Assembly: GCF_013372125.1 (NCBI RefSeq) | Contig: NZ_CP053826.1 | Coordinates: 1,240,001-1,304,000 of the forward strand | Reading direction: 5' to 3' | Length of the DNA stretch: 64,000 bases | DNA from: Campylobacter curvus | GTDB lineage: Bacteria; Campylobacterota; Campylobacteria; Campylobacterales; Campylobacteraceae | Shown here: piece by piece, positions 2,184 through 60,892 of the stretch | How the letters are laid out: every line of letters begins with the position of its first letter | Position numbering within the stretch: the first letter of the stretch is position 1 | Position numbers and translations under genes: made by a program | The notes under the pieces: generated by a model | Seen by the model: the letters and a program-made list of their open reading frames with translations, nothing else | Databases searched by the model: none | What the model was told of the DNA's origin: nothing

Positions 2184-2376
2184 TTTTCTTTGGCTCTGTT
2201 ACAATATTTCACTGGTTTTTAGATTTTAAAGCGAAGTCAAACCTTGTGAAGCGACGCTATCGCCGCCGATTTACAGGGAAGCGGTAGCTGACCGCGTAAA
2301 TCGTGCTATATGTTCGGCGTTTTGCGGAGCGAACAAGGTTTGCGAAGTAAGTGTCAATGATTTATTATTTTTCTTT
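2184..2376. mobile_element. R1: MITE-like element (177 bp) with 8-bp flanking repeats
   Basis: The left end at 2192 reads GGCTCTGTTACAATATTTC. The core at about 2235-2340 is nearly identical to that of R7 (about 5 differences in 109 bases). The right end reads GTGTCAATGATTTATTA, matching the inner part of the family's terminal inverted repeat, but the outermost bases (TAACAGAGCC type) are missing. TTTTCTTT occurs at 2184-2191 and again at 2369-2376, as expected for a target duplication. No gene is inside. It accounts for most of the gap before the end of uvrB. Confidence 0.75.
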
Positions 2377-2428
2377 TTATCCATCAGCAAAACGCTAGAG
2401 CATCATCCTACTGTAAATTTTAACTAAT

Positions 2429-4408
2429 TCACAACTTCCTAATCTTGGCTATCTCATCCCTTAGCGCCGCAGCCTTTTCGAATTCTAGCTGCGCAGCGGC
2501 TTCGAGCATCTGTTTTCGCAGCTCTTTTATGATTTTAGCGCGTTCGGTGGTCGGAATTTTTTCTAAATTTTTCGCCTTACGGTAGGTCTCGCCTTCATCC
2601 TCGATATGCAGGCTCTCTTCGATATTTCTGCTGGCTGAGCGCGGCGTTATGCCGTTGGCTTTGTTGTATTCATCTTGCAGCTTACGGCGCGCATTTGTCG
2701 TATCCATCGCCTCTTGCATAGATTTTGTGATCTTTTTGGCAAACATCAGCACGCGACCATTGACATTTCTGGCCGCCCGCCCCATCGTTTGTATGAGACT
2801 CGTCGTGGAGCGTAAAAAGCCCTCCTTGTCAGCGTCCATGATAGCTATGAGGCTGACTTCTGGCATATCAAGCCCCTCGCGTAGTAAATTTATGCCGATG
2901 AGCATGTCAAAGTCGCCCCCGCGAAGCCCTCTGATGATCTCGTTTCGCTCGATGGCGTCGATATCGGAATGCATATATTTGACCTTGACGCCAAGCTCAG
3001 TGTAGTAGCGACTTAGCTCCTCCGCCATTTTCTTAGTCAGCACCGTCACCAGCACGCGCTCGTTTCGCTCGATGACCTTTTTTGCCTCGTCAAATAAAAT
3101 TTCGACCTGATTGTCGCTGTCTTTTATCTCGATGAGCGGATCAAGTAGCCCTGTCGGACGCAAAATTTGCTCATACACATGCCCCTTTGAAAGCCTCAGT
3201 TCAAGCTCGTTTGGCGTCGCCGAGACAAAAAGAAATTTCGCCTTTTTGTTTATAAACTCATCAAATTTTAGCGGGCGGTTATCAAGCGCGCTTGGCAGGC
3301 GAAAACCGTATTCAACCAGCACCTCCTTGCGGCTGCGATCACCTGCATACATGCCGCGAAACTGTGGCAAGCTAACGTGACTCTCATCGACGATGACTAG
3401 GTATTCGCCGCTATTAAGCAGCTCGAAATAATCAAACATCGAATAGGGCGTTTCGCCCGGCTTTTGTCCCGTGAGATGGCGCGCGTAGTTTTCGATACCC
3501 TTACACATGCCCGTGCTACTCATCATTTCCAGATCAAATTCCACGCGCTGTTTTAGGCGCTGAGCCTCCACTAGCTTGCCCATAGCGTTAAATTCTACCA
3601 GTCGCTCGTCCAGCTCCTTTTCGATGTCCTTTATCGCGACTTTTAGACGATCCGCGCCCACGATAAACTGGCTCGTGGCGTAAAGCGTAAATTTACCGAC
3701 ATCTTTTAGCTTTTTGTTATCCAGCACGTCAAAATGATACATCGCCTCGATTTCATCGCCAAAAAACTCGATGCGTAGGGCTTCGTCGTTGTAATACGCC
3801 GGATAAATATCGACCACGTCGCCATTCACGCGAAAGTCGCCGCGGTCAAAATAAGCGTCGTTTCGCTTGTAGCCCATATCCACGAGCTTTGTAAGCAAAT
3901 TTCGCTGATTTAGCCGTTCGCCGACGTTTAGGTAGGCGACCATGCCTTGGTATTCGCTCGGGTTGCCTAAGCCGTAGTTTGCCGACACCGAGGCTACGCA
4001 GATCACGTCGTTAAAGCTAAGCAAGCTCGCCGTCGCACTTAGTCGCATGCGCTCGAGCTCCTCATTTACGGAGCTGTCCTTTTCGATGTATAGGTCGCTG
4101 CGCGGTATGTAGGCCTCCGGCTGATAGTAGTCGTAGTAGCTGATGAAATACTCCACGTGATTGCTCGGGAAAAAGCCCTTAAACTCGCTATAAAGCTGTG
4201 CGGCGAGGGATTTGTTATGCGTCATGATAAGTGTTGGCATGTTTAGCTCACGGATCACGTTTGCCATCGTGAAGGTCTTGCCGCTGCCCGTGACGCCAAG
4301 CAGGGTGTTATATTTGTTGCCGCTTTTTATGCTTTTTACGATATTTTCTATCGCCCTTGCCTGATCGGGGCTGGGGCTAAATTTAGACGAAATTTCAAAT
4401 TTACTCAC
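2429..4408 (-). CDS. uvrB: UvrABC system protein B (excinuclease subunit)
   Basis: UvrB is the helicase-like damage-verification subunit of nucleotide excision repair; it receives damaged DNA from UvrA and recruits UvrC. The 659-residue protein has Walker A GVTGSGKT at residues 38-45, the beta-hairpin segment [12 protein letters not shown], a DESH box near residue 337, helicase motif [14 protein letters not shown], and a C-terminal UVR motif (about 620-655) that contacts UvrC. Length is normal. The ATG at 4408 follows AAAGG. It is transcribed divergently from the ZapB-like gene. Confidence 0.97.
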
Positions 4409-4436
4409 ATTTTACCTTTAAATTTAATGGCTAAAT

Positions 4437-4464
4437 TTTATATCAAACGCCGCCCCTTTGTCAA
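4437..4464 (-). promoter_or_regulatory. Candidate sigma-70 promoter of uvrB
   Basis: On the minus strand TTGACA (plus-strand 4459-4464) is followed after 16 bases by TATAAA (4437-4442), about 30 bases before the uvrB start. A classical -35 box is unusual for this genus, so the match stands out. Confidence 0.5.
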
Positions 4465-4501
4465 ACCTTGAAATTTTAAAAAGAATTTAGCCTGTGCGTG
4501 C

Positions 4502-4507
4502 TAAAAT
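4502..4507 (+). promoter_or_regulatory. Candidate -10 box for the ZapB-like operon
   Basis: GCTAAAATATGG contains a TAAAAT -10 box 31 bases before the ATG at 4539, in the divergent uvrB intergenic region. Confidence 0.4.
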
Positions 4508-4538
4508 ATGGCTTCACTACCAAATTTAAAGGATCAAA

Positions 4539-4772
4539 ATGTTAGAAGATAGCGCGGTTTTAAGCACCCTTACAGGCAAGGTAAACGACCTCATCGCAAA
4601 ATACGAAGAGCTTTGCAAAACGAACGAAGAGCTACACAATCAAATCGTAACGCTAAAAGCGCAAAATGAGGCCAAAAGTAACCAAATAATGCGCCTTGAA
4701 GAGGACCTTGACAAGAAAAATAGCGAAGCCGACGACGTTCTTAAGAAAATCGAAGCAGTGCTTGGAAAATAA
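4539..4772 (+). CDS. Small coiled-coil protein, ZapB-like
   Basis: A 77-residue protein that is almost entirely heptad-patterned coiled coil (LIAKYEELCKTNEELHNQI and LEEDLDKKNSEADDVLKK). It resembles ZapB-type cell-division coiled-coil proteins in size and pattern. The ATG follows AAAGGATCAAA. Its stop overlaps the next start by one base (TAATG), and the next product looks ZapA-like, which supports a division role by context only. Any short coiled coil could fit, so the function is inferred. Confidence 0.6.
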   Translation: MLEDSAVLSTLTGKVNDLIAKYEELCKTNEELHNQIVTLKAQNEAKSNQIMRLEEDLDKKNSEADDVLKKIEAVLGK

Positions 4773-4996
4773 TGAAACAAATCACGCTTACGATCTCATC
4801 TCGCGACTACACTATCACTTTAGAGGATGATTTTGCGGAAATTTTCGAGCGTGACTGGCAGAAATTTATGGGAGGACGTAAATTCATCGAGCCAAAGGAG
4901 CTTCTAAACGCCTTCATCGAGAAATGCTACGAAAGCCACACAAACGAACGTGCAGTAAAAAACGTCATAAAAGACGTCGAAAAAGCTTTAAAATGA
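4772..4996 (+). CDS. Small ZapA-like protein
   Basis: A 74-residue protein. The N-terminus, KQITLTISSRDYTITLED, has the beta-strand pattern of ZapA N-termini (a short strand, a loop, then Y-I), followed by an acidic/aromatic helix. ZapA bundles FtsZ filaments at the division site. This protein is shorter than typical ZapA (about 100 residues) and lacks the long C-terminal coiled coil, which the upstream partner could supply. It is translationally coupled on both sides (TAATG and ATGA overlaps). Confidence 0.45.
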   Translation: MKQITLTISSRDYTITLEDDFAEIFERDWQKFMGGRKFIEPKELLNAFIEKCYESHTNERAVKNVIKDVEKALK

Positions 4997-5418
4997 AAAA
5001 TATAATGAAAAAAGCCGCATTCACGATGATAGAGCTGGTTTTTGTCATCGTCATACTGGGCATCTTAGCCGGAGTCGCACTGCCAAAGCTGTTTTTTACG
5101 AGAGACGATGCGAGTCTGGCAAACGCAAGAGCCCAAATGATCGCCGTTCAAAGCGGAATTTCACTGGCGTATAATGACAGCTTGCTATCAGGAAACCCGG
5201 GCTATCCCGCAAACCTAGGAGATAACGGCGCGAGCCTGTTCGTCGGAGTCACGAACCTAGGCGTAAGAGACGCGGGAGCCGGCAAAAACGGCTGGCACAA
5301 AACGGGCGGAAACACATACACGCTCACTCTTGGCAGAGAAACGGCAAATTTCACCTACGATCCTACTAACGGCGCATTTAACTGCACCGACGGCAGTCTG
5401 TGCGACAAAATGCAATAG
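4993..5418 (+). CDS. Type IV prepilin-like (pseudopilin) protein
   Basis: A 141-residue protein with a class III signal: KKAAFTMIELVFVIVILGIL, i.e. a basic leader, cleavage before Phe, Glu at +5 and a hydrophobic helix. Residue -1 is Ala rather than the usual Gly. The C-terminal globular part has two cysteines (FNCTDGSLCDKMQ) that could form a disulfide. The ATG at 4993 overlaps the preceding TGA; a longer upstream frame has no ribosome binding site. Such proteins serve type II secretion or DNA-uptake machines. No pilus assembly genes are adjacent. Confidence 0.8.
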   Translation: MKNIMKKAAFTMIELVFVIVILGILAGVALPKLFFTRDDASLANARAQMIAVQSGISLAYNDSLLSGNPGYPANLGDNGASLFVGVTNLGVRDAGAGKNGWHKTGGNTYTLTLGRETANFTYDPTNGAFNCTDGSLCDKMQ

Positions 5419-5420
5419 GT

Positions 5421-7283: not shown

Positions 7284-7287
7284 ATTC

Positions 7288-7299
7288 AGCGCTTGCGCT
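7288..7299 (+). terminator. Short hairpin after priA
   Basis: AGCGC-TT-GCGCT lies 5 bases after the priA stop and is embedded in a longer imperfect CTAAAT/ATTTAG pairing. There is no clear T-run, so termination activity is uncertain. Confidence 0.3.
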
Positions 7300-7346
7300 A
7301 GAGTATTTAGAATTCACTTTTTAAAAACAGAGCTAAAAAATTTTAT

Positions 7347-7714
7347 GGCTCTATTATAGTAAAGTATTGACACCAGCTTCGCTTCTGCTTTGCAGTTGCG
7401 AACGAAGCGAAGCAAAAACCCTGCTCACTCCAGGAGCGACCTAGCACAGACGCGAACAGCGTTTCAAGGAAATCTTTTTGCTTCGCAAAAAACACGATGC
7501 TGATTTTGTGCGGGAGCGAGTAGCCGAACGTATAGCACGATTTGCGCGGTCAGTTAATACTTCCCTGTCCTCGTAGCGAAGTCTCGTTACGAGTGCGTAG
7601 CACGAAGTAAAAATCGGCGGCGATAAGCTCGCTAATAAGGTTTTTACAGGGATGCTGTTCGCATTCTCCTGCTCTTGAAATTTAAAAGAATACTTTCTTT
7701 TTTAAAACAGGGCC
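7347..7714. mobile_element. R2: longest MITE-like element (about 368 bp), possibly composite
   Basis: The left end at 7347 reads GGCTCTATTATAGTAAAG then TATTGA. The right end reads TTTTAAAACAGGGCC (reverse complement GGCCCTGTTTTAAAA). Internal modules occur in the same order as R6 (CTTCGCTTCTGCTTTGCAG near the left; ATCGGCGGCGATA and TACAGGGATGCTG near the right), plus a 66-bp module at 7428-7493 shared with R4. The 8-bp flanks do not match. A second family-like end (ACAGAGCT, 7326-7333) just outside the left border suggests nested insertion or rearrangement. It fills most of the priA-ispG gap. Confidence 0.65.
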
Positions 7715-7757
7715 AAACAAAAAACTAAATTTCAACCTTTTAAAACCTTAAATTTTA

Positions 7758-7763
7758 TATAAT
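7758..7763 (+). promoter_or_regulatory. Candidate -10 box of ispG
   Basis: TATAAT lies 25 bases before the ispG start and 43 bases after the right end of element R2. Sequence upstream of this promoter is therefore element-derived. Confidence 0.55.
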
Positions 7764-18076: not shown

Positions 18077-18323
18077 AAAATTTTGGCTCTTTTCTGACTA
18101 AAGTATTGATTTATTGAAATTTAAGCGTAGCCAAATAGGATGAGCGGCGACATTACCCTCCGAAAATCAGGAAAGCCGTAAGGCTGACCGCGATTTTTTG
18201 CTTCGATTTCTTCTCGCAACTGCGAACAGAACGTGCTACACGTTAGGCACTCTGTCGCAAGCTCATCTTATTTGCGAAGCTTTTAAATTTATCAACGCTT
18301 TATCAGAAAAGAACCAAAATTTT
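18077..18323. mobile_element. R3: MITE-like element (231 bp) with perfect 8-bp target duplication
   Basis: The left end at 18085 reads GGCTCTTTTCTGACTAAAG then TATTGAT. The right end (18291-18315) reverse-complements to GGTTCTTTTCTGATAAAG then CGTTGAT. AAAATTTT flanks both sides (18077-18084 and 18316-18323). Subterminal arms also pair (AAATAGGATGAGC on the left, GCTCATCTTATTT on the right), so the element could fold into a long hairpin. Its interior is diverged from other copies but retains GCTGACCGCG and TTTTTTGCTTCG modules. Confidence 0.85.
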
Positions 18324-18505
18324 AAATATTTTAGCGTAGTCAAATCTTATTAGCAAGCCTATCGTTGTAGCTTTGCTCGGCTATTTGCTCCAACACAGAC
18401 GCCGTTTGTGTCCGCGATCGTAGTCGCTACTGAAGAGAGCGAAATTTGCAAAGCCTAAATTTATTTATTTTTTACGCATGGATGCTAAATTAACAAAATC
18501 AAAAT
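18324..18505. repeat. Diverged relic of the same repeat family upstream of a Sel1 gene
   Basis: Directly after R3, AGCGTAGTCAAATCTTATTAG and AAGCCTATCGTTGTAGC resemble the AGCGAAATCAAACCTTGTGA and GACGCTATCGCC stretch of R7/R1 with many substitutions. No clear terminal repeats or target duplication were found. No gene lies in this stretch; the end of it carries the leader of the next gene. Confidence 0.35.
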
Positions 18506-19262: not shown

Positions 19263-21356
19263 ATGAGTGAGAACGAGAGCCTTTTTATAAATCGCGAGCT
19301 TAGTTGGCTACGCTTCAACTCGCGCGTCTTAGCCCAATGTGAAAAGAACATACCGCTGCTTGAAAAGCTAAAATTCATAGCCATCTATACGACGAATTTA
19401 GACGAATTTTACATGATCAGGATCGCCGGGCTAAAGCAGCTTTTTGCCGCCGGTGTGGTGACTAGCGGAAGCGACGGCATGAGCCCGCTAGATCAGCTTC
19501 GTGAGATCAGAAAATACTTGCAAGAGGAGCAAAAGCTAGTCGAGGCACACTACAACAAGACTAAAGACGCACTGGCAAAAGAGGGTCTTCTCATCAAAAA
19601 CTATGACGAACTTGATGACGAGCTGAAGGCGAAATGCGACGAATATTTTTTCTCAAATATCCTGCCGGTCATCGTGCCTATCGCGGTGGATACGACGCAC
19701 CCCTTTCCTCACCTAAACAACCTCAGCTTCTCGCTCGCCGTAAAACTAGCCGACATCGAGCATCCTGAAATTTTAAAATACGGCATGATCCGTATCTCTC
19801 GCGTCTTGCCGCGTTTCACTCAGCCTAGCGAAAAGGTCTATGTGCCCATCGAAACCATCGTCCACCGCCATGCTGAGGAAATTTTCCCCGGCTACAAGCT
19901 GCTTAGCTCGTGTGCGTTTAGAGTCACCAGAAACGCCGACATCGTCATAGAAGAGGAAGAGGCGGATGACTTTATGATGATACTGGAGCAAGGGCTAAAA
20001 CTACGTAGAAAAGGCGCTTTCGTGCGCATGCAGATAGAAAAGGACGCGGATAAGGACATACTTGAGTTTTTAAATTCTCATATGAAAATTTTCCATAAAG
20101 ATATCTTTTTCTCAAATGTCCCGCTCACGCTCAGCTCACTTTGGCAGATCGCCTCAAATAAGGACTTTAGCCACCTGGCAAATCCTCCTTACGCACCAAA
20201 GACCTTGCCGCCGTTTGGCGAAGGTATCTCGATATTTGATGCTATCGACAAAGAGGACATCGCGATCATGCATCCTTACGAGAGCTTTGATCCGGTCGTT
20301 AGCTTCATCAAAGAGGCGAGCAAAGATCCCAAAGTCATCTCCATACGCATGACGCTTTACCGCGTGGATAAAAACTCGCCTATCATCCAGTCTCTCATAG
20401 ACGCTGCCAGCGATGGCAAACAAGTGACCGTCATGGTCGAGCTAAAGGCGCGCTTTGACGAGGAGAATAACCTGCACTGGGCAAAGGCTCTAGAAGACGC
20501 CGGCGCACACGTGATATACGGCATTACAGGCTTTAAAGTGCATGCCAAAGTCTCTCAGGTCATCCGCCAGATCGGCGATAAGCTGAAATTTTACATGCAT
20601 TTTGGTACGGGCAACTACAACGGCAGCTCGGCTAAAATTTACACCGATGTGAGCCTCTTTACTAGCCGCGAGGAATTTAGCAACGATACGACGACGTTCT
20701 TTCACATCCTCTCTGGCTACAATAAAAACCGCCGCCTAAAAACGCTCAGTATGTCGCCGTTTCAGATAAAAGAGCGTATCATAGAAAAGATAAAGATCGA
20801 GGCGTCCAAAGGCGCTCAAGGGCGCATAATCGCAAAAATGAACGCCCTTATCGACACGGACGTGATAGAGGAGCTAAGTCTGGCTTCAAACGCCGGCGTG
20901 AAGATCGATCTCATCGTGCGCGGAGTGTGCGGACTGCGCCCCGGTATAAATGGTAAAAGCGAAAATATCCACGTGCGCTCGATCATCGGTAAATACCTCG
21001 AGCACGCTAGAATTTTATATTTTAAACACAGCGATCCTAAAATTTACATCTCGAGTGCAGACTGGATGCCACGAAATTTAGAGCGCCGCTTGGAGCTGAT
21101 GACGCCGATTTATGACGCGAGACTACAAGAGAGAATGCTTGAAATTTTAGAGCTTCAGCTAAGCGACAACGAGCTTGCCTTTGAGCTAAAAAGCGACGGC
21201 GAATATGAAAAAGTGGGCCGCAGCAGCGATGCAAAGGTCATAAACAGCCACGATGTCCTAGAAAACTATATCGCTAAAATTTATAGATCGCTCAAGAAAG
21301 ATACCGACAAGGCAAAGGCCGATCTCATCGCGACGAAGTTATTAAAAGAGAGCTAA
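19263..21356 (+). CDS. ppk: Polyphosphate kinase 1
   Basis: Ppk reversibly polymerises ATP terminal phosphate into polyphosphate, important for stress survival in Campylobacter. The 697-residue protein begins with the family signature [17 protein letters not shown]. The autophosphorylated histidine is in [10 protein letters not shown] (about 425), with the second conserved His region in [27 protein letters not shown] and FGTGNYN motifs are present. Length is normal. The ATG follows AAAGGAAATTT. Confidence 0.96.
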
Positions 21357-21360
21357 ATTC

Positions 21361-21470
21361 GGCCCTTTGTGGCAGCAAATACTTCACAAATCTTATACGC
21401 TCCAGGAGCGACCTAGCGTAGACGCGGGCAGCGTTTCAAGGAAATCTTTTTGCTTCGCAAAAAACTACTC
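21361..21470. mobile_element. R4: partial MITE-like element downstream of ppk
   Basis: Starts with GGCCCTTTGTGGCAGCAAAT, a degenerate family end, just after the ppk stop. Bases 21400-21465 match R2 7428-7493 with only 4 differences in 66. No recognisable right terminal repeat or target duplication is seen. A small AGCCC-CTGC-GGGCT hairpin follows at 21471-21484 before the convergent exonuclease gene. Confidence 0.55.
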
Positions 21471-21487
21471 AGCCCCTGCGGGCTTCC

Positions 21488-22309
21488 CTAATTTTCGTCG
21501 GCAATAGCGTCGCTATTTTGCAAGCTTGGCTCTGGTTTTAGCTTCATGCTAGGAGCGGTCTTACTAAAATTTATGAGATCCTCTACGCTTTGGACGCTAA
21601 AAGGCAGCCTAGAGATGCAGATCTTTAAAATTTCAGTCGCTGCAACGGCGTCATTTAGGGCTCTGTGATGAGTATTGTTTATGCCAAGCAGCTCTTTTAG
21701 CGAGCCAAGCCCGTATTTTTGTGAGGCTATTGTTCTGCGCGAAAGATCGATCGTGCAAAGCTTGCGGTTTAAAAGCATCCCAAGCCCGATGTTGCTTAGG
21801 CTCTGCGAGATAAATCCATAGTCAAAATTTACATTATGCGCGACAAAAACGCTCGTACCAAGGAAAATTTTAAACCGCTCGAGTACGCTTTTAAGTGACG
21901 GTGCACCCATTAGATCGCTTTGGCTGATGCCGGTTAGCTGCGTGATGTTTTCAGGAACGAAAGGTGCATCGACAAAGCTTTCAAAACGCCCGATCTCTGC
22001 GCCGTTTTTTATCTTTAGCGCGCCTATTTCGATGATCTGACCGCTGGTTATGCCACCGCTGGCTTCGATATCCACGACACAAAATTCCTGCTGCGTTATA
22101 TCTCTAAATCTAGTTTGCAGCTCGATCTCATTTTGCTCGTTTCTAACGATATCAAGCCCTAAAGTGCGCCAAAGCTCGATGTTTTTCACGTCTATGACGC
22201 CGACAAGCTCCTCTATATCTGAAAATTTCGATACGAACTCATGATAGCTCATGCTATGAGCGGCTAAAATGTTGAGTAAATTTTCCAGGCGCTGCTTTTG
22301 CGGTTTCAA
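21488..22309 (-). CDS. DnaQ-like 3'-5' exonuclease (DEDDh)
   Basis: A 273-residue protein. After an N-terminal helical extension of about 75 residues it has the DEDDh exonuclease motifs: VVDIEASGG (Asp80, Glu82), FVAHNVNFDYGF, and HHRALNDAVAATEI with the catalytic His-x4-Asp. It resembles the epsilon proofreading subunit of DNA polymerase III or a stand-alone relative. The extended N-terminus is not typical of E. coli DnaQ, so the polymerase link is inferred. Its ATG overlaps the stop of rpe. Confidence 0.85.
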   Translation of the reverse strand: MKPQKQRLENLLNILAAHSMSYHEFVSKFSDIEELVGVIDVKNIELWRTLGLDIVRNEQNEIELQTRFRDITQQEFCVVDIEASGGITSGQIIEIGALKIKNGAEIGRFESFVDAPFVPENITQLTGISQSDLMGAPSLKSVLERFKIFLGTSVFVAHNVNFDYGFISQSLSNIGLGMLLNRKLCTIDLSRRTIASQKYGLGSLKELLGINNTHHRALNDAVAATEILKICISRLPFSVQSVEDLINFSKTAPSMKLKPEPSLQNSDAIADEN

Positions 22310-28105: not shown

Positions 28106-28334
28106 AATTTTAAGGCTTCGTTACAATATTTCATTGATTTCCAGATTTCAAAGCAGGAGAATGCGAACAGCATCCCTGTAAAAATCTTATGAAGCGACTC
28201 TATCGCCACCGATTTACAGGGAGGCGAAGCGACCGAGTAAAAAACGTGATACTGATTTTTCACAACGCTCCACTCGCAACCGCTAGCAGAAGTGAAGGAG
28301 TAAAAGTAGCTTGAAGGTATAGAGCCAAATTTAA
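28106..28334. mobile_element. R5: MITE-like element (213 bp) with 7/8-matching flanks
   Basis: The left end at 28114 reads GGCTTCGTTACAATATTTC then ATTGAT; the right end (to 28326) ends TATAGAGCC, i.e. GGCTCTATA reversed. The flanks AATTTTAA (28106-28113) and AAATTTAA (28327-28334) differ at one base. The core GCAGGAGAATGCGAACAGC, CATCCCTGTAAAAATCTTA and CACCGATTTACAGGGAGGCG matches R6 (reverse strand) and R2. It lies downstream of both the YdcH gene and the convergent cysE gene. Confidence 0.75.
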
Positions 28335-31314: not shown

Positions 31315-34256
31315 TTGGCCTCCTTTCTTAGATGGATCAAAATTTCATCTATCACGTCGTCATCGTCTTTGCTGCGAGATCTTAGGCGCACTTTTTCATC
31401 GTTTTTGCGCGTCAAAACGATATTTTGCTCGCTGTTTGAGATCGCCTTGTAGCCGCATTTTAGAGCTAAAATTTTGATCGCTATGAGGTCTAAAAACTGC
31501 TTTGTATAAACGTCCATCTTGCCAAATCTATCCTCAAGCTCATTTGCTATCTCGTAGACCGCGCCCACGCTCTCGCATTTGCTAAGACGCCTGTAAATTT
31601 CAAGCCTGAGGCGATCCTCGCGGATGAAGTCTTGGTTTAAAAAGGCGTTTATGCTTAGCTTTAGATCGATCTTGTCAAGCTTTGCGCTGTCGTTGTTTAA
31701 AAGCTTGTTTATCTCGTCTTCAAGCATCTTTAGATAAAGCGAGTAGCCGATAGCCTCGATGTGTCCGCTCTGCGCCTCGCCTACGATATTGCCGCCACCT
31801 CTGATCTCAAGGTCATGATAGGCTAGTAGCGAGCCGGAGCCCAAAAACGAGTTGCTCTCAAGTGCCAATAGACGCTTCAGCGCATCGCCTCCCAGCGCGT
31901 CCTTGTCCTCGACTAAAAAGTAACAATACGCCTGTTTGTCGCTCCTACCGACGCGTCCACGCAGCTGATGCAAGTCGGCCATGCCAAATTTATTTGCATT
32001 TTCGATGATGATGGTGTTTGCGTTTGGCAGGTGGATGCCGCTTTCTACTATGCTCGTGCAAAGCAGCACGTCGTATTCGCCACGCTCGAATTTCATCATC
32101 TCGTCCTCGGTGGTTTTGGCGTTTATCTTGGAGTGAAGCACGAGGATGCGGATTTTAGGTAAAATTTTACGTAAATTTTGCGCGGTCTGCTCTATGTCTG
32201 CGATATGGTTGTGGATATAAAATGCCTGTCCACCGCGTCTCATCTCACGCATGAGGGCCTCTTTAACGACCTTTTCGTCCCACTCTCTCACGCTCGTTCG
32301 CACATCGAGCCTAGAGCTTGGCGCAGTGGCTAAGACCGAGTAGCTTTTTATCTTGCTAAGCGCCATATTCAGGCTCCTAGGGATCGGTGTGGCGCTCATG
32401 CTCAGGATATGAGAATTTGCCGAGACCTCTTTTAGCTGCTCTTTTTGTTTGACGCCAAATTTATGCTCCTCATCGATGACGATGAGCCCGACGTTGTTCG
32501 CCTTTACGCCTAAAAGCGCGTGAGTACCGACGCACACGCAAGGTTCGTTGTCTTTTAGCGCCTTTAACATCGCTGATTTTTCCTTAGCGGATGTAAATCT
32601 ATCGAGCCTGAAAATTTTGACGCCAAAGTCCGCGAACCGCTCCTTTAGGCTCTTATAATGCTGCGCGCTAAGAAGCGTGGTCGGCACGAAAAAGAGCGCG
32701 CTAAAGCCTGATTTGACGCAGGCAAATATCGCGCTCATCGCGACCTCCGTCTTTCCAAAGCCAACATCCCCGCTTAAAAGCCTATCCATGACTCGCGCGC
32801 TTTTTAGATCGCTCATTATCTCCTCGACCGCTTTTTGCTGATCGGTAGTGTAGTCAAATCCTGCGTTTTGCACGAATTTTAGATATTCAAGATCGTTTTT
32901 TTCTATCACTTTGCCAGCTATGAGCTCGCGCTTTGCAGCCATAGCGACGATCTTTGAGGCGATGACGAAAAGCTTCTCGCGCACCTTCTCTTTTATCTTT
33001 GCAAAGCTTGCCTTTCCTAGACGGTCCAGCACCGCGACCGAGCCGTTTTGCGCGATGTAACGATCGATCAGGTTTAGATGCTCTACCGGTAGCAGCAGCT
33101 TATCGTCGTTTTGATAAGCGATCACGACGAATTCTTTCGTTGCACCCAAAACGGTTATCTTTTCAAGTCCTAAAAACCTGCCTATGCCGTAGTCCTCGTG
33201 CACTACGTAGTCGTTTATCTTTAGCTCGTCCACTACAAGGCTGGCACGCTTTACGCGTCTTTTTTTCTCAAATTTATTGAGCGAAACGATGATCTGCTCG
33301 TTCGAGGTCAAATTTAAAACGAGCGGGCTTTGCACGAACTGCACGTTTTTAAAGCGCCTTAGATCAAACTGGCTAAAAAGCCCTTCGTTGCGCGCCAGGA
33401 CGCTGATCTTTTTGTTTTGATTGAGCTCGAAAAAATCATCGTTTAACGTAACGACCAGGTCTTTATAGACTTTGGCCTCGGGTAAAATTTTAAATTTTTC
33501 AAGCCTCTTTGCATCGTCTGCAAGCTCGCTAAGATCGATCTTTTTAACGAGTTTGCACTCAAATTCGGCCAGATAATCGCCAAAATCATCTATCGCCCAA
33601 AAACCCAGCGAATTTAGATCGTTCACCAAAGCGTCCGTTTGCATCCGCTCTATCTTTTGGCTCACGTCTTCAAACTCAGCCTTGCTTAAATTCGCGATAA
33701 ACGGCGTTATCTCCACGCTTTCTAGCTCCGTTTTCGAGCTTATTTGCGTGGCGGTGGAGTAGTTTCTGATACTCTCGACCTCATCGCCAAAGAGCAAAAT
33801 TCTGACCGGCTCGTTCATATTTACGCCGTAAATGTCGATGATCTCGCCTCTAAGGCTAAATTCTCCCGCACCTTCGACGATATCAACGGCCTCGTAGCCA
33901 AAGCGCATGAGCTCGTCTGCAAGCTCGTTTAAATTCAGCTTTTGACCGAAATTTATCGTCCTGCTTTGTAGGTGTTTTGCCTTTGGCAGGCGGTTTAGCA
34001 GGGTGTGAAAGGGGCTAATTATGAGCTTTTTGCCGTTAAATTTATAATAAGCGCTAAGCACGCTTGAAATTTCAAAAAGCTCCTCGCTGAAGCTTCGCAG
34101 ATCGTCGCCAAAATGCGCTCTAAAATCAGGTAGTCTAAATGCTTTAAAGCCGGCAAATTCCGCCGCATCGGCGCATAGGCTCGCCTCTTTGTCGTCCTCG
34201 CAGATCAAAATTTGAGCGTCGTTTTTTAAAAGATATTCATAGACCCTTGCTTGCAT
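31311..34256 (-). CDS. mfd: Transcription-repair coupling factor Mfd
   Basis: Mfd displaces RNA polymerase stalled at lesions and recruits UvrA. The 981-residue protein has the UvrB-like N-terminal region, the RNA-polymerase-interaction domain (LKINDYVVHEDYGIGRFLGLEKI), Walker A GDVGFGKTE, the DEEHKFG box, TRG motif SKINAKTTEDEMMKFERGEYDVLL and a C-terminal D7 domain. It is shorter than E. coli Mfd (about 1150) mainly at the N-terminus. The start overlaps folC by 20 bases. uvrB is elsewhere in this window. Confidence 0.95.
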   Translation of the reverse strand: MQARVYEYLLKNDAQILICEDDKEASLCADAAEFAGFKAFRLPDFRAHFGDDLRSFSEELFEISSVLSAYYKFNGKKLIISPFHTLLNRLPKAKHLQSRTINFGQKLNLNELADELMRFGYEAVDIVEGAGEFSLRGEIIDIYGVNMNEPVRILLFGDEVESIRNYSTATQISSKTELESVEITPFIANLSKAEFEDVSQKIERMQTDALVNDLNSLGFWAIDDFGDYLAEFECKLVKKIDLSELADDAKRLEKFKILPEAKVYKDLVVTLNDDFFELNQNKKISVLARNEGLFSQFDLRRFKNVQFVQSPLVLNLTSNEQIIVSLNKFEKKRRVKRASLVVDELKINDYVVHEDYGIGRFLGLEKITVLGATKEFVVIAYQNDDKLLLPVEHLNLIDRYIAQNGSVAVLDRLGKASFAKIKEKVREKLFVIASKIVAMAAKRELIAGKVIEKNDLEYLKFVQNAGFDYTTDQQKAVEEIMSDLKSARVMDRLLSGDVGFGKTEVAMSAIFACVKSGFSALFFVPTTLLSAQHYKSLKERFADFGVKIFRLDRFTSAKEKSAMLKALKDNEPCVCVGTHALLGVKANNVGLIVIDEEHKFGVKQKEQLKEVSANSHILSMSATPIPRSLNMALSKIKSYSVLATAPSSRLDVRTSVREWDEKVVKEALMREMRRGGQAFYIHNHIADIEQTAQNLRKILPKIRILVLHSKINAKTTEDEMMKFERGEYDVLLCTSIVESGIHLPNANTIIIENANKFGMADLHQLRGRVGRSDKQAYCYFLVEDKDALGGDALKRLLALESNSFLGSGSLLAYHDLEIRGGGNIVGEAQSGHIEAIGYSLYLKMLEDEINKLLNNDSAKLDKIDLKLSINAFLNQDFIREDRLRLEIYRRLSKCESVGAVYEIANELEDRFGKMDVYTKQFLDLIAIKILALKCGYKAISNSEQNIVLTRKNDEKVRLRSRSKDDDDVIDEILIHLRKEAK

Positions 34257-44602: not shown

Positions 44603-44930
44603 AAAATTTAGACTCTGTTATAATAAATCATTGATACCCATTTCGCTTCTGCTTTAAAGTTGCAAACGAAATGAAGCAAAAACCCTGTTCGCTCCGCAAA
44701 GCGCCGAACATAGCACGATTTTTTGCTTCGTTACACCCGCAACTGCGAGCAGACCGCGGTCAGCTACCGCTTCCCTGTCCTCGTAGTGAAGTCTCGTTAC
44801 GAGTGCATAGCACGAAGTAAAAATCGGCGGTGATAGCGTCGCTTCACAAGGTTTTTACAGGGATGCTGATCGCATTCTCCTGCCTTGAAAGCTAAAAATC
44901 AATAAAATATTACAACAAAGCCAAAATTTA
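44603..44930. mobile_element. R6: best-preserved MITE-like element (312 bp), perfect target duplication
   Basis: The left end at 44611 reads GACTCTGTTATAATAAATC then ATTGAT; the right end (to 44922) reverse-complements to GGCTTTGTTGTAATATTTT then ATTGAT, identical at 19 of 25 positions. AAAATTTA flanks both sides (44603-44610, 44923-44930). Read on the minus strand, it contains every module found in R1, R5 and R7 in the same order, plus extra segments, so those look like internally deleted forms. No reading frame resembles a transposase. Confidence 0.88.
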
Positions 44931-55628: not shown

Positions 55629-55636
55629 GAGATAGG

Positions 55637-56140: not shown

Positions 56141-56433
56141 TAAATAATATCGAAAAACTAAATGGCGTATCCGGCTCTCAAAATAGCAAAAAGATAGCTC
56201 CGGCAGCAGATGGCAGCGACTTTGCCAGCATGCTAAACGACTCGCTAAAAGAACTCAATAAAGTCCAAGAAAATGCCGATAAAGCCATCGCCGATCTAGC
56301 TACCGGCGAGGTAAAAGACCTGCACCAAGCGGCTCTAGCCATCGGCAAAGCAGAGACTAGCATGAAGCTCATGCTTGAAATCCGTAACAAAGCGCTCAGC
56401 GCATATAAAGAAATTTCAAGAACCCAAATTTAA
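56137..56433 (+). CDS. fliE: Flagellar hook-basal body complex protein FliE
   Basis: A 98-residue protein joining the MS ring and rod. DFASMLNDSLKELNKVQENADKA and LHQAALAIGKAETSMKLMLEIRNKAL are typical; ends YKEISRTQI. Third gene of the rod operon, 6 bases before the PBP gene. Confidence 0.95.
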   Translation: MINNIEKLNGVSGSQNSKKIAPAADGSDFASMLNDSLKELNKVQENADKAIADLATGEVKDLHQAALAIGKAETSMKLMLEIRNKALSAYKEISRTQI

Positions 56434-56439
56434 AGCTTT

Positions 56440-58275
56440 ATGAATCCCAAAAAATCAAAAATAACCATACTTTTTTTATTTATCACATTTGGGATCATCA
56501 TCTTTGTCGCGGTAGTATTTTACCGAGCGACGATCGAACGCAGACTGCCTAAACTCCAAACTAGCGAGATAAACACCGCACTTCGCGGCAATATCGTAAC
56601 AAAAGACGGCTTTAGCGTATCCTCCAGCCAAAAGCTCTATAAAGTCATGCTAGACACCAGAAACATCGATCCTAACAAAAAAGAGATGTTTATCAAGCTT
56701 TATTCGCTTTACAGCGGCGACGATCCTGACAAAGTAAGAAAGATAATAAACGCCACCAAAGGGCTTGTCACACTATCTTACAGTATCGATGCAAAGGGTG
56801 CTACATATCTTCAAGAGCTCTCAAGAAAGCTAAATAGAAAAAGCATCTTGATCTCCTATCAAGACCCAAAGACAGGACTGGCTTCCTTTCAAGGTATGCG
56901 TATAATGGAAAGCGGGCAAAACAGGCTTTTCATGTCAAAAAGTGCGCTGACACCGGTCATCGGATACGTCAATAAAACCGAGAGCGACGCACTCACTAAA
57001 AGTAAAGGCGTAAAAGGGCTCGAAAAATACTACGAGGACTATCTGGCACCGATACAAAACGCCAAAATTTTAGGCCCTAGAGACATAGGCAACAACATAA
57101 TCCTAACAAGCGACTCAAATCTGGCAAACAGAGTGGACGGCTACAACGCTGTGCTCTCCATACCGCTGAAATTTCAAACCAAGATCGAGCAGATATTAGA
57201 CGATAGGCGAGAATTTTTAGACGCCAAGGAGCTTGTCATTTGTATAATGAACAGCAAAAACGGCGAAATTTTAGCCCTCGCCTCAAGCTCCAGATACGAT
57301 CCCTCAAATATCAAAAAGCAAGACTACGGTGCGCTAAATTCTACCGCGACAGAATACGCATACGAGGCTGGCTCGGTATTCAAGCCCTTTGTCTTCGCCC
57401 TCTTGCTTCAAGAAAAAAAGGTAAATCCTTTTGAACTCGTAAATACCTACAACGGCCGCTATCAGCTTGGCAAGCGCATCATCAAAGACACGCACCCAGA
57501 GCCCTTCATGAGCGCGGAGGATGTCATCGTGCATAGCTCAAATATCGGCATGATACAGCTAGTAGAGCGCCTAAACGGTCCACAAATTTATCAAGGGCTT
57601 TTAAACTTCGGCTTTTCAAGAAAGAGTGGCATCGATATGCCATACGAGCAAGTAGGCATGATGCCGACGGTAAATAAGCTAAATTCCTCCACCTACAAAG
57701 CGACCGTGAGCTATGGATACGGCCTACAAGCGACATTTATGCAGCTTTTAAAAGCCTACAACACCTTCAACAACAAAGGCGTCGAGGTCACGCCTCATAT
57801 AGTCGAATTCCTGGAGAAAAACGGCAAGCGCTTCGAGCTGCCAAAGCCTGAACCCCAGCAAGTCATCAGCCAAGAAACAGCTAAGATCATGAAAAGGATA
57901 CTCATCAAAACCGTAGAAAAGGGAACCGGTCTAAAGGCGATGACACCGGGTCTTGAAGTGGGCGGCAAAACGGGAACGGCGCACATAGCCTCCGGCAAAG
58001 GCGGATACAGCAACACTTATAATGGCTCGTTTTTTGGCTTCGCAAACGACACCAAAGGCAACAGCTACACCATCGGCGTACTAGCGCGCGACCCTAAAAA
58101 GCCGTATTATTACTTTGGTGCGCAAAGTGCGCTACCGACCTTTAAAAAAGCGATCGATCTGATGATAGAAGAGGGATATCTCGTACCCGATCAACAGGTC
58201 ATAGCTGAATTTGAAGCTAAAAAAGAGAAGCAAAAAGACGAGAAAGCAAAGCCGCAAAAGCAAATTTTAGACTGA
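56440..58275 (+). CDS. Class B penicillin-binding protein (FtsI/PBP2 family)
   Basis: A 611-residue septal or elongation transpeptidase. One N-terminal helix (ILFLFITFGIIIFVAVVFY), the dimerisation-domain motif RGNIVTKDG, and the transpeptidase triad: SxxK in AGSVFKPF (Ser about 312), SSN in HSSNIGM, and KTGTA near 508. The C-terminus ends in a charged tail (EAKKEKQKDEKAKPQ). Its position directly after fliE suggests at least part of its expression comes from the flagellar sigma-54 promoter. FtsI (PBP3) is the more likely identity. Confidence 0.9.
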   Translation: MNPKKSKITILFLFITFGIIIFVAVVFYRATIERRLPKLQTSEINTALRGNIVTKDGFSVSSSQKLYKVMLDTRNIDPNKKEMFIKLYSLYSGDDPDKVRKIINATKGLVTLSYSIDAKGATYLQELSRKLNRKSILISYQDPKTGLASFQGMRIMESGQNRLFMSKSALTPVIGYVNKTESDALTKSKGVKGLEKYYEDYLAPIQNAKILGPRDIGNNIILTSDSNLANRVDGYNAVLSIPLKFQTKIEQILDDRREFLDAKELVICIMNSKNGEILALASSSRYDPSNIKKQDYGALNSTATEYAYEAGSVFKPFVFALLLQEKKVNPFELVNTYNGRYQLGKRIIKDTHPEPFMSAEDVIVHSSNIGMIQLVERLNGPQIYQGLLNFGFSRKSGIDMPYEQVGMMPTVNKLNSSTYKATVSYGYGLQATFMQLLKAYNTFNNKGVEVTPHIVEFLEKNGKRFELPKPEPQQVISQETAKIMKRILIKTVEKGTGLKAMTPGLEVGGKTGTAHIASGKGGYSNTYNGSFFGFANDTKGNSYTIGVLARDPKKPYYYFGAQSALPTFKKAIDLMIEEGYLVPDQQVIAEFEAKKEKQKDEKAKPQKQILD

Positions 58276-58276
58276 A

Positions 58277-58310
58277 AATTTGGACGCTATCGTTTGGCGA
58301 CGTCCAAATT
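58277..58310 (+). terminator. Bidirectional terminator hairpin between the PBP gene and the convergent small gene
   Basis: AATTTGGACG (58277-58286) pairs with CGTCCAAATT (58301-58310) around a 14-base loop, immediately after the PBP stop and before the convergent gene's stop at 58322. Confidence 0.65.
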
Positions 58311-58321
58311 CAGGCCATTGC

Positions 58322-58783
58322 CTACAATAGTCCAAACTCCGAAAGGACGGAATTTAGATCGACAGACGAGCTTGAAGTGCCGGCTAGCTTCTTTTGCCTC
58401 TCAAGCAAAGTCGAGCTCGTCATGGCGGCGTTTAGCTCCTTGCGATACTCGCTTAGCAGTTCGTCCACGACCTTTGCGAGCTCAGCCCTTTGGCTATCCG
58501 TTTTGCTCGCGTCATTGAGCCCCAAAAGCTCGGTGAGCTCCTTTTTCTTTTGCTGGATCTTCTGCTCTATCTTGTCGGCGTTTAGCTGCGTGAGATATCC
58601 GTAGGCGCCAAGCTCGGTGAGTTTGCGCTTGAATTCCTCGACGCTACCTGAAATTTTAGACTCGCTAGCTACTTTTTTGAGCGAAAGGTTCAAAATTTCA
58701 TCAAAACTATTGCTTTTGTTTTTGCCGTTAGCCTTACCGCGTTGAAGCAGATAATCAACAATATCGTTGTTCTCGACTCTCAT
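58322..58783 (-). CDS. Hypothetical helical protein, predicted flagellar regulon member
   Basis: A 153-residue soluble protein without a recognisable family. It is mostly charged helix with a coiled-coil centre (ADKIEQKIQQKKKELTELLG) and a Ser-rich C-terminal segment (GTSSSSVDLNSVLSEFGLL). The ATG at 58783 follows AAAGGAGATAC. A sigma-54 promoter match lies 30-47 bases upstream, and the gene faces the flgBC-fliE operon. A chaperone or regulator of flagellar assembly is a reasonable guess, unproven. Confidence 0.8.
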   Translation of the reverse strand: MRVENNDIVDYLLQRGKANGKNKSNSFDEILNLSLKKVASESKISGSVEEFKRKLTELGAYGYLTQLNADKIEQKIQQKKKELTELLGLNDASKTDSQRAELAKVVDELLSEYRKELNAAMTSSTLLERQKKLAGTSSSSVDLNSVLSEFGLL

Positions 58784-58813
58784 GTATCTCCTTTAAGATG
58801 AGATACTTTACGC

Positions 58814-58830
58814 AAGCAAATTTTATTCCA
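58814..58830 (-). promoter_or_regulatory. Candidate sigma-54 promoter overlapping the hemH stop codon
   Basis: Minus-strand TGGAATAAAATTTGCTT has GG (plus 58828-58829) and GC (58816-58817) separated by 10 bases, with the same GGAA...TTGCTT shape as the flgB promoter. The -24 region includes the TAA of hemH. Confidence 0.75.
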
Positions 58831-59755
58831 CTGCGTATCGCAAGATGAAATTTACAAATTCATCGCTAAAGTTAGGGCACTCCACGACATCGTAAAAGCT
58901 AAAGCCAAGCTCATCGGCAACACGCTTATATTCTATGACAAGCTCGAAGATCGTCTCCGAGTTGTCGATGCAAAATGAGATCGGATAGATGAGCGCTTTT
59001 TTGCTCTCACAAACCTTCAAAGCCTCGTTTAATGGCGGCTCCAGCCATTTAACCGGTCCTAGTCTGGACTGATAGGCTAGCTTGATCTCTTTAAATTTTA
59101 AACCCTCATCGTTTAGCATTTTTGAGAGTATTTTTACATGCTCTTTGACGTGAGCCTCGTATATATCGCCGTTATCGATGATCTTTTGAGGCAAAGAGTG
59201 AGCCGAAAATATCAAACTCATATCGCTGATATCAACGCCTAAAATTTTATTTTTTATGCTCTTTATGATGAGCTCGTTGTAGCTTTGCTCATCATAAAAT
59301 GGCTTTAGCACGCGTATCTCGCCCTTAAAATTTAGCTTTTTACAGGCTTTTTCAAGGTCATTTAGGCTAGAGACCACCGTAGTCACCGAGTGATGCGGAT
59401 ACAGCGGCAAAACGATCACTTCGTCAAAATTTTGATATCTTGCGAGCACATCTTTTGTAAATGGCGGCGTGTAGTTCATCGCAAAATCTACTGCGTATTC
59501 ATCTTGGTAGTTTGAAATTTTATCGCAAAGCGCTTGAATGAGCTCGCATATCGGAGACTTGCCTCCTATTTTGGCGTAGTTTCGTTGCGCGGTCTTGAGT
59601 CGTCCTTTGGTTATCATCATCGCTACGAATTTTCGCAAAATTTTGTTTTTTATCCCCAGGATACAGGGGTCGTTGAACATATTTTTTAAAAAGATCTCGA
59701 TCTCTTCGGGCTTGCTAGGGCCGCCCATATTTAGGAGCAATATAAGTTTTTTCAT
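58823..59755 (-). CDS. hemH: Ferrochelatase
   Basis: Inserts Fe2+ into protoporphyrin to make haem. The 310-residue protein has LLLNMGGPSKPEEIEIFLKNMF, LYPHHSVTTVVSSLNDL, SAHSLPQKIIDNGD (metal-site His about 187) and GPVKWLEPPL. It overlaps the Gfo/Idh gene by 4 bases. Confidence 0.95.
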   Translation of the reverse strand: MKKLILLLNMGGPSKPEEIEIFLKNMFNDPCILGIKNKILRKFVAMMITKGRLKTAQRNYAKIGGKSPICELIQALCDKISNYQDEYAVDFAMNYTPPFTKDVLARYQNFDEVIVLPLYPHHSVTTVVSSLNDLEKACKKLNFKGEIRVLKPFYDEQSYNELIIKSIKNKILGVDISDMSLIFSAHSLPQKIIDNGDIYEAHVKEHVKILSKMLNDEGLKFKEIKLAYQSRLGPVKWLEPPLNEALKVCESKKALIYPISFCIDNSETIFELVIEYKRVADELGFSFYDVVECPNFSDEFVNFILRYAVE

Positions 59756-60624
59756 GCAAAAAGCTCTTTGATCTTTATAGCGTCATCCACGCTTGAGAGC
59801 TCGTCGCTATCGCCGCTTTGACAAAGATCGTAAAAGGCGTCGTATTGCGCTCTTAGCTCGTTCATCTGCGCGTCTATCTTTAAATTTATCTGCCCGTCCT
59901 CGGTGAGCTGATGAAGTCTGTAATGTATAAGATCGCCGAAATACACGCCGCTTTTTGCATTCACTTCGATGCCAAAGCGCTCGAACGATCCGCAAAAAGA
60001 GTCGGTGATACTTACTAAAATTTGGTTTTTGCTTTTGAAATTTATGATGGCGTTGTCAGAGGATCTGGTGTTGGTTTTATTTGTCTGCATGCAGGAAAAT
60101 TCGCAAATTTCACTCTCCAGTAGGGTCTTTGCCAGATCGATGTCGCACAAAGAGAGCTCATTTATGATGTTTCCCTCGTGCGAGGGCTTAAAATGAGCGA
60201 TATTTACGCTATATACTTCCTCTTCTCTAGCAAGCGCTCTTTTCAGCGATACGACCGTGGGGTTAAACCTCTCATCAACTCCCGTGCAAACTCGCGCTTT
60301 ATTCACGCCCGCAGCGTATTTTATCTCTTTAAGCTCACTGGCGTTTTTAAAGATCGGGCGAGAGATCAGGATATTTTGACAGTATTTCACGCTCTGACAA
60401 AACGCATCCATCGTCTCTTGATGCGGCAGACAAAGCACGATGGCTTGGGGTTTGGCTACTTCTATGAAGCGCTTGAAATCGGTAAAAAATTCAGCCCTGC
60501 AAAAGGTATCGGTATTTTGTTTGTCAAAGACGCCGCAAACTTCAAATTTATCAGAACGCCTAAGCTCTGCGTAGTGCCTTTTGCCAACATCCGAATAGCC
60601 AACGATACCGATCTTTAGCTTCAT
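59752..60624 (-). CDS. Gfo/Idh/MocA-family oxidoreductase-like protein
   Basis: A 290-residue protein with Rossmann start KIGIVGYSDVGKRHYAELR, VLCLPHQETMDAFCQSV and VDERFNP. The usual EKP motif aligns with SRP in NILISRPIF, so the catalytic/nicotinamide lysine is lost. The protein is also shorter than most family members. It may be a non-catalytic or altered-specificity member. It is adjacent to hemH and upstream of alaS in the divergent direction; substrate unknown. Confidence 0.75.
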   Translation of the reverse strand: MKLKIGIVGYSDVGKRHYAELRRSDKFEVCGVFDKQNTDTFCRAEFFTDFKRFIEVAKPQAIVLCLPHQETMDAFCQSVKYCQNILISRPIFKNASELKEIKYAAGVNKARVCTGVDERFNPTVVSLKRALAREEEVYSVNIAHFKPSHEGNIINELSLCDIDLAKTLLESEICEFSCMQTNKTNTRSSDNAIINFKSKNQILVSITDSFCGSFERFGIEVNAKSGVYFGDLIHYRLHQLTEDGQINLKIDAQMNELRAQYDAFYDLCQSGDSDELSSVDDAIKIKELFA

Positions 60625-60656
60625 TTGCGCCCTTTAAAATTTTAGAAATTTTTAAT

Positions 60657-60892
60657 AATTATATGGCTCTATTCTGACAAAGTATTGATTTTTAACTCTC
60701 AATAGCGAAATCAAACCTTGTGAAGCGACGCTATCGCCGCCGATTTACAGGGAAGCGGTAGCTGACCGCGTAAATCGTGCTATACGTTCGGCGCTTTGCG
60801 GAGCGAGCAAGGTTTTTGCTTCACTTCGTTCGCAACTGCAAAGCAGAAGCGAAGTAAGTATCAATACTTTAATATAACAGAACCAATTATAT
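60657..60892. mobile_element. R7: MITE-like element (220 bp), perfect target duplication
   Basis: The left end at 60665 reads GGCTCTATTCTGACAAAG then TATTGAT; the right end (to 60884) reverse-complements to GGTTCTGTTATATTAAAG then TATTGAT (19 of 25 identical). AATTATAT flanks both sides (60657-60664, 60885-60892). The inside has CAAACCTTGTGAAGCGACGC and GCGAGCAAGGTTTTTG, whose ends pair into a long hairpin, and the GCGGT-AGCTG-ACCGC small hairpin. The core is nearly identical to R1. It fills most of the gap between the Gfo/Idh gene and alaS. Confidence 0.88.

What the first reader, a model, noticed from the sequence alone, without database searches (positions are those of the whole stretch)
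2184..60892. A family of MITE-like intergenic elements with 8-bp target duplications (R1-R7)
Seven copies or fragments occur at 2192, 7347, 18085, 21361, 28114, 44611 and 60665. The well-preserved copies share about 25-bp imperfect terminal inverted repeats (outer GGCTCTGTT or GGTTCTGTT, inner ATTGAT). Perfect 8-bp duplications flank R3 (AAAATTTT), R6 (AAAATTTA) and R7 (AATTATAT); R5 has 7/8 and R1 has TTTTCTTT with its right tip lost. Cores share modules in the same order. No transposase is present, so they would be moved in trans. GGNTCTGTT ends and 8-bp duplications recall IS6- or IS1595-type elements, but the parent is not established. I know of no named Campylobacter family like this.
Basis: partly seen in the sequence, partly recalled or inferred. 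Interest (0 to 1): 0.82.

Follow-up and report, generated by a model that had tools for sequence, protein, structure and literature searches.

The report
Hairpin mini-transposons with IS1595-type ends
The seven repeats are copies of a small mobile element without a transposase gene, found at about seventy places in this bacterial chromosome, with ends like those of transposons in relatives and a core that keeps a hairpin fold; it is a new family of a known kind.

Summary
The finding holds. A profile recovers R1-R7 and 69 sites in the stretches fetched from this 1.97-Mb chromosome; 40 reach both profile ends, of which 25 have perfect 8-bp duplications (shuffled mean 0.87, maximum 6 in 10,000) and 32 at least 7/8. 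R7 has a clean empty site in nine relatives; the closest, G026, carries AATTATAT once. The parent type is IS1595: three congeners carry 3.0-5.2-kb transposons with similar ~25-bp ends, 8-bp duplications and IS1595 transposases, of which the elements share essentially only the tips. This genome has one IS1595-family transposase hit, on an IS with other ends, so the copies look orphaned. Of 47 other genus genomes only G007 has a copy. The core is a long hairpin with strong covariation (14 of 48 pairs with changes on both sides, 0 of 500 shuffles as high) and optional hairpin modules at fixed points, as in pneumococcal BOX elements. A strand preference of the fold is seen in the core (33 G.U, 3 A.C cells) but not in R7 as a whole or in two modules. 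New member of a known kind with unusual anatomy.

The parts
2192..2372 (+). R1: full core, right tip (about 10 bp) lost; TTTTCTTT at 2184-2191 and 2369-2376
   Evidence: profile 6e-59; 97% to a short copy over its positions 10-186; duplication read by eye
7347..7714 (-). R2: long copy carrying optional hairpin modules; no duplication; AACAGAGCT just left (7326-7334) looks like the tip of another copy
   Evidence: profile 2e-13 and 5.4e-6; modules; neighbouring tip by eye
18085..18315 (+). R3: complete copy, left end closest to the G019 type, AAAATTTT duplication
18316..18477 (+). very degenerate second copy beside R3 (weak)
   Evidence: profile E 0.014
21356..21558 (-). R4: core fragment, no terminal repeats found
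   Evidence: profile 2.2e-7; no end pair
28114..28326 (+). R5: left part of the core plus a short right tip; 7/8 duplication
   Evidence: profile 2.9e-16 over 28114-28248; right tip and duplication by eye
44611..44922 (-). R6: complete 312-bp copy with modules after core positions 47, 82, 105 and 150; AAAATTTA duplication
60665..60884 (+). R7: complete 220-bp copy with the module after core position 150; AATTATAT duplication; empty site in relatives

Best explanation
These are non-autonomous mini-transposons (MITEs) moved by an IS1595-family transposase. The enzyme recognised the ~25-bp inverted ends (GGCTCTGTT...ATTGATT) and inserted them at AT-rich intergenic targets with an 8-bp stagger. 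The family multiplied in this lineage to about 70 sites; no transposase belonging to such ends is detectable in the genome now, so the copies are probably immobile unless a congener's transposon arrives. The core between the ends is unrelated to the three transposons examined. It is a long imperfect palindrome whose pairing has been kept, with optional hairpin modules at fixed points. SHOWN here: multi-copy family, terminal repeats, 8-bp duplications, one empty site, tips shared with IS1595 transposons, covariation, modular inserts. INFERRED: mobilisation in trans, loss of the driver, selection on a folded transcript, and an effect on neighbouring transcripts.
For: Copies: 69 sites in fetched own-genome stretches, 40 reaching both ends. 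Duplications: 25 of 40 perfect, shuffled mean 0.87, maximum 6 in 10,000; targets of the 25 perfect pairs are 98% A+T. Empty site: R7 flanks abut in 9 relatives and G026 holds AATTATAT once. Parents: G007 3627 bp (duplication AATATAAA) and G019 5215 bp (AAAAAAAT); G023 2999 bp, TTTTACTT read by eye. The G019 and G023 transposases are each 64% identical to that of G007 and all three pass NCBIfam's IS1595 model (182-185 bits, cut-off 75). The best element-to-transposon matches are tip to tip: 90% over 30 bp for G007, 89-90% over 27-31 bp for G019, 94-100% over 14-17 bp for G023. Driver not found: PF12762 rings once in the own genome, on a 746-bp IS with other ends, while the same search finds G007, G019 and G023. 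Structure: 97.9% of 861 cells paired, 14 of 48 pairs with changes on both sides, 0 of 500 shuffles as high, slid partners 33-41% paired.
Against: No transposition was observed. No transposon with ends identical to the main subfamily was found. Of 8 transposase regions scanned only G007 and G019 gave an end pair with at least 7/8 duplication (one region of G023 was cut before its right end; its ends come; five others gave none). In one search, 30 transposase loci were scanned within about 1.5 kb and only two (L096, L117), both with other ends, gave a perfect duplication. Besides the tips, one search lists internal matches of 12-16 bp (E 0.002 or weaker; best 40 rows shown). Only one of the seven window copies (R7) gave a clean empty site: R3 and R6 are absent in three of four relatives compared but with larger length differences, R1, R2 and R5 were not resolvable, and three further sites were inconclusive. 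The direct protein search in the own genome (none) had no control of its own. Strand preference of the fold is not uniform: R7 folds better on the other strand (-75.3 against -79.2), as do two of four modules.
Confidence: 0.92

Rival explanations
1. Ordinary conserved intergenic DNA or structured regulatory RNAs inherited vertically, not mobile elements.
For: The fold is conserved with changes on both sides of pairs, as for a real RNA. Rfam has no match at gathering threshold in the 4 loci scanned, so it is not a known RNA.
Against: 8-bp duplications in 25 of 40 copies, empty site at R7 in nine relatives, a match in only 1 of 47 other genus genomes.
Confidence: 0.02
2. REP/REPIN-type hairpins spread by a Y1 (RAYT) transposase.
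For: GC-rich hairpin modules repeated at many places.
Against: No Y1_Tnp match in any of the 23 genus genomes searched (own included), while the same search rings in 7 of 14 genomes of other genera and in 5 of 14 controls. 8-bp duplications and IS1595-like ends do not fit REPs (recalled).
Confidence: 0.02
3. IS6-family-derived elements.
For: IS6-family ends and 8-bp duplications are similar at first sight (recalled).
Against: The three transposons found with such ends encode IS1595-family transposases. IS6 transposases were not searched for.
Confidence: 0.03
4. Elements moved by the genome's own 746-bp IS1016-like element.
For: It is the only IS1595-family transposase hit in the genome and has an 8-bp duplication.
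Against: Its ends (GGCTCAAGATAAGTTA...) share only GGCTC with the elements; it is not the best match at either end of any of 39 copies compared, of the 40.
Confidence: 0.04

Closest known systems
BOX elements of Streptococcus pneumoniae (PMC3049150, passages seen)
   Same: Intergenic composite repeats with outer parts and optional internal modules, predicted RNA fold, ends resembling an IS of the host
   Different: [quoted passage not shown] BOX ends resemble ISSpn2, these resemble IS1595-family transposons. The sequences were not compared
Correia elements of Neisseria (PMC10969869 and PMC3049150, passages seen)
   Same: Intergenic MITE with 26-bp inverted ends, more than 100 copies; RNase III cleaves transcripts that carry it
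   Different: Ends not compared by computation; RNase III processing untested here
IS1595-family transposons of G007, G019 and G023
   Same: Similar ~25-bp ends and 8-bp AT-rich duplications
   Different: They carry a transposase and, beside it, methyltransferase or restriction-modification genes; the elements share essentially the tips only
Archaeal MITEs sharing only their borders with a partner IS (PMC3852290, passages seen)
   Same: Only the inverted repeats match the partner element
   Different: Here the partner type was found in sister species, not in the same genome

Membership tests
MITE | short, without a transposase gene | tested here: met
   183-430 bp in the 40 copies; one pair of 542 bp; essentially tips shared with transposons
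MITE | terminal inverted repeats | tested here: met
   51 of 74 candidate places gave a pair; ends listed
MITE | target-site duplication | tested here: met
   25 of 40 perfect 8-mers
MITE | insertion shown by an empty site | tested here: met
   R7 in 9 relatives; all other sites tried were unresolved or had larger length differences
MITE | partner transposase in the same genome | tested here: not met
   only an IS with other ends; partner type present in sister species
IS1595 family (as non-autonomous derivative) | ends and 8-bp duplication as in transposons with an IS1595 transposase | tested here: met
IS1595 family (as non-autonomous derivative) | mobilised by such a transposase | not testable with these tools
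   needs an assay
IS6 family | partner with IS6 transposase and same ends | not tested
   no IS6 search was made; the three end-sharing transposons found are IS1595
REP/REPIN | RAYT (Y1) transposase in the genome | tested here: not met
BOX-like composite repeat | optional internal modules at fixed points | tested here: met
   by strict patterns in 69 sites with flanks: after 150 present 13, absent 24; after 82 present 13, absent 28; after 105 present 5, absent 28; the rest matched neither, among them R6 for position 150 (R6 has it)
BOX-like composite repeat | boxA/boxB/boxC sequence homology | not tested
   sequences not compared

The most novel reading that the evidence does not exclude
The core is a selfish folding cassette that is largely independent of its ends: nearly the same core rides on more than one IS1595 end type (R7 is 95% identical in the core to the main subfamily but its left tip is of the G019 type), it is kept foldable, it grows and shrinks by exchanging hairpin modules at fixed points, and one such hairpin is shared across the genus with other intergenic mosaic repeats that mostly lack these ends. 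The cassette would persist by stabilising, processing or terminating the transcripts into which it lands.
Probability: 0.2. Interest if true: 0.75.

Novelty: new member of a known kind. Interest (0 to 1): 0.5.

Why it matters
It supplies a MITE family with its transposon type identified; my searches of the held library listed none for this genus (listings, of which only the top 20 of 52 and 15 of 67 were shown). Copies that differ by single hairpin modules at identical points, spread confined to one lineage, a missing driver and strong covariation make it a good natural test of why bacterial MITEs keep foldable cores: as RNA, as DNA hairpin, or through arm-to-arm correction. It also gives insertion markers for strain comparison.

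Tried and rejected
Empty sites elsewhere: R1-R3 and R5-R6 were compared with four relatives, three further sites (773016, 775118, 777790) with ten. R3 and R6 are absent in three of the four but with extra length differences (R3: about 1 kb here against 1 bp there; R6: about 0.8 kb against 45-85 bp); R1, R2, R5 and the three sites gave no collinear junction. A fixed-spacing end pattern in the own genome was little better than its control (30 matches against 13 for the reversed pattern). A core pattern found nothing in genome contigs or viral contigs and a short copy nothing in plasmids or phages; the tool warns that records of or very near this genome may be left out, so these zeros say little about close relatives. 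A named-genome search for the transposase returned 55 loci, none from this genus (best: a Helicobacteraceae MAG, 57%); their ends were not examined. RAYT origin of the modules: rejected. Origin by internal deletion of one of the three transposons: no internal similarity beyond 12-16 bp. Rfam: nothing in 4 loci. A relation to rRNA intervening sequences (a ~200-bp one is reported in 16S rRNA of C. curvus, PMC3734277, passages) was thought of but not tested. Slippage between direct repeats as the way modules come and go: no such repeats seen at the 150 module by eye; not computed.
Full report
OBSERVATION. The seven copies were read directly and recovered by a profile built from 18 short copies. 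The window is position 1,240,001-1,304,000 of a single 1,974,918-bp contig. R3, R6 and R7 are complete, R1 lacks only its right tip, R2 is a long copy without duplication, R5 has lost most of its right half, R4 is a fragment without ends. A weak extra hit lies beside R3.

HOW MANY COPIES. R7 as a query gives 71 match pieces and R6 gives 89 in the own genome. The pieces I entered in a script (the weakest were left out) cluster into 64 places. I fetched these and the pattern-derived candidates. The profile finds 69 sites in this DNA and the window at E 1e-4, after merging neighbouring hits; 40 reach both profile ends. Parts of the genome that no search hit were not scanned with the profile. The 40 are 183-430 bp long, most often 187; one longer pair of ends, 542 bp apart with 7/8 duplication, is.

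TRANSPOSITION SIGNATURE. Ends were chosen by similarity to GGCTCTGTT and ATTGAT alone. Of 74 candidate places 51 gave a pair, 25 with perfect 8-bp duplications and 33 with at least 7/8. Re-pairing flanks at random gives 0.79 on average and at most 9 in 10,000. With profile-defined ends it is 25 of 40 perfect and 32 of 40 at least 7/8, against 0.87 and at most 6 for perfect. Perfect targets are 98% A+T. The single copy in G007 also shows AATTTTTA on both sides (read by eye).

EMPTY SITE. With window 58,800-63,700 as query, all 40 other genus genomes drawn match somewhere. In nine of them (G026, G007, G060, G021, G012, G024, G017, G063, G013) the two flanks of R7 abut, overlapping by 7-8 bases; in the rest the alignment does not reach the site from both sides. 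In the alignment, the closest relative G026 has AATTATAT once exactly at the junction; the others have a slightly different sequence there. Most simply, R7 was inserted after the split from G026. R3 and R6 are also absent from three of four relatives, but within larger gaps; other sites were unresolved.

THE PARENT. A search of 60 genomes (own included) with R7 matched 17 at E 0.01. G007 has one near-complete copy; G019 has two tip matches that bound a 5.2-kb element; most others match only one hairpin stretch (positions about 139-194). The few tip-like matches in G020, G031 and G033 gave no element. The G019 element has ends GGCTCTTTTCTGAAATAGTATTGATT, duplication AAAAAAAT, a transposase and restriction-modification genes. 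G007 and G023 carry related transposons of 3627 and 2999 bp, with ends such as GGCTCTGTTGCAATAACTTATTGATT and GGCTCTGTTGTAATAAAGCGTTGATT and an 8-bp duplication (G023 by eye). Other transposase regions gave no such ends: five of the eight scanned, and one search found perfect duplications in only 2 of 30 loci, both with other ends. The G019 and G023 transposases are each 64% identical to that of G007; all three pass NCBIfam's IS1595 model with 182-185 bits against 75. Element tips match transposon tips end to end; internal matches are 12-16 bp at E 0.002 or weaker (best 40 rows). Of 39 copies compared end by end, none has the own genome's IS as best match at either end. PF12762 finds that IS as its only hit in the own genome while ringing for G007, G019 and G023.

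TAXONOMIC RANGE. Of 48 genus genomes, own included, only the own genome and G007 (one copy, 79%) match a 186-bp copy at E 1e-6. G026, the closest at R7, has none but is only 68% complete. This looks like a burst in one lineage.

THE CORE. An alignment of 18 short copies (17 own, 1 of G007) gives a consensus hairpin of 48 pairs. 97.9% of 861 cells pair; 14 pairs have changes on both sides; none of 500 shuffles reaches any of the five measures; slid partners pair in 33-41%. Cells count sequences, not events: the three-pair flip shared by two rows may be one event, and related rows inflate shuffle results. In the core, G.U cells outnumber A.C cells 33 to 3, on 14 and 2 of 37 pairs; at the ends it is 28 to 6. 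Leaving out the one core pair whose commonest state is G.U, my hand count from the tables is 22 to 3. The same alignment folds to -51.4 kcal/mol in one direction and -30.2 in the other, where another structure is found. Because the structure was derived in the first direction, part of this asymmetry is built in. Of 33 copies with at least 7/8 duplications, 25 fold better in that direction, but they share ancestry, and R7 is among the 8 that do not; z-scores against 30 shuffles each run from -9.3 to 0.1. Two of four modules also fold better on the opposite strand. So folding is conserved, while the claim that one RNA strand is selected is only partly supported. Arm-to-arm correction of quasi-palindromes could produce paired changes without selection; it would not by itself favour G.U over A.C.

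MODULES. Longer copies are the same core with extra hairpins at repeated points: 33 bp after core position 150, 42 bp after 82, 32 or 63 bp after 105, about 20 bp near 40, and a mosaic between about 117 and 134. Strict patterns find the first in 13 sites and its absence in 24, the second in 13 and 28, the third in 5 and 28, of 69 (the remaining sites matched neither, R6 among them for the first). Combinations are not nested: R7 has only the module after 150, the copy at 1,433,403 only that after 82, and the 187-bp copies none. Hairpins resembling the module after 150 also occur in intergenic repeats of other genus members (E down to 2.9e-10). The 21 contexts compared share sequence with one another, and a GGCTCTGTT-like end (at most 1 mismatch) lies within the 900 bases examined in only 4 of 21. 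In the window the core word GCAACTGC of this hairpin occurs 4 times, always in R2, R3, R6 or R7. No RAYT was found to explain the hairpins.

WHERE THEY SIT. With a crude gene call, 20 of 69 sites lie between convergent and 6 between divergent genes (p 0.009); of 42 in tandem contexts 29 are oriented with the genes and 13 against (p 0.02); one site had no neighbour called. An earlier count on 33 copies gave 7 convergent and 3 divergent. There is no genome-wide null for these proportions. This fits avoidance of promoters, but is only suggestive.

MECHANISM. Best reading: IS1595-type transposase in trans, 8-bp staggered AT-rich insertion, amplification in one lineage, then loss of the driver. Function of the fold, most likely: a stable structure in transcripts that read into it, acting as terminator, stabiliser or RNase III site, as reported for Correia elements (PMC10969869, passages). 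This last step is inference only.

NOVELTY. MITEs with foldable transcripts, and composite ones (BOX), are known (PMC10969869, PMC3049150; passages seen). Literature searches for Campylobacter or IS1595 with MITE terms listed no such family (listings, partly capped), and the prokaryotic MITE review does not mention IS1595 or Campylobacter in its main text. The library lacks most subscription journals.

Noticed in passing
L120:6137-9763, L087:4527-9741, L121:5271-8269: IS1595-family transposons of three congeners each carry DNA methyltransferase or restriction-modification genes beside the transposase: possible defence-carrying transposons.
   Followed up: partly
L096:1423-2168 (own genome near 32,800-33,200, minus strand): A 746-bp element with ends GGCTCAAGATAAGTTA and duplication AAATCTTA, holding the only IS1595-family transposase hit of this genome; 'IS1016-like' is my label from recall.
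   Followed up: partly
21 of the loci L062-L086, around 1200-1900 of each: Other genus members hold large mosaic intergenic repeats, mostly without GGCTCTGTT-like ends, that contain a hairpin like the module after core position 150.
   Followed up: partly
G005 (loci L094, L109, L117): One congener has 25 matches to the IS1595 transposase domain, several with stop codons: an IS expansion with decay.
   Followed up: no
window 7326-7334: Just left of R2 the sequence AACAGAGCT looks like the tip of another copy, suggesting a lost neighbour or nested insertion (by eye).
   Followed up: no
ends of the main subfamily, e.g. L192:1109-1294: The end GGCTCTGTTATAAT contains TGTTATAAT, which resembles an extended -10 promoter box pointing inward (recalled motif, not tested).
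   Followed up: no
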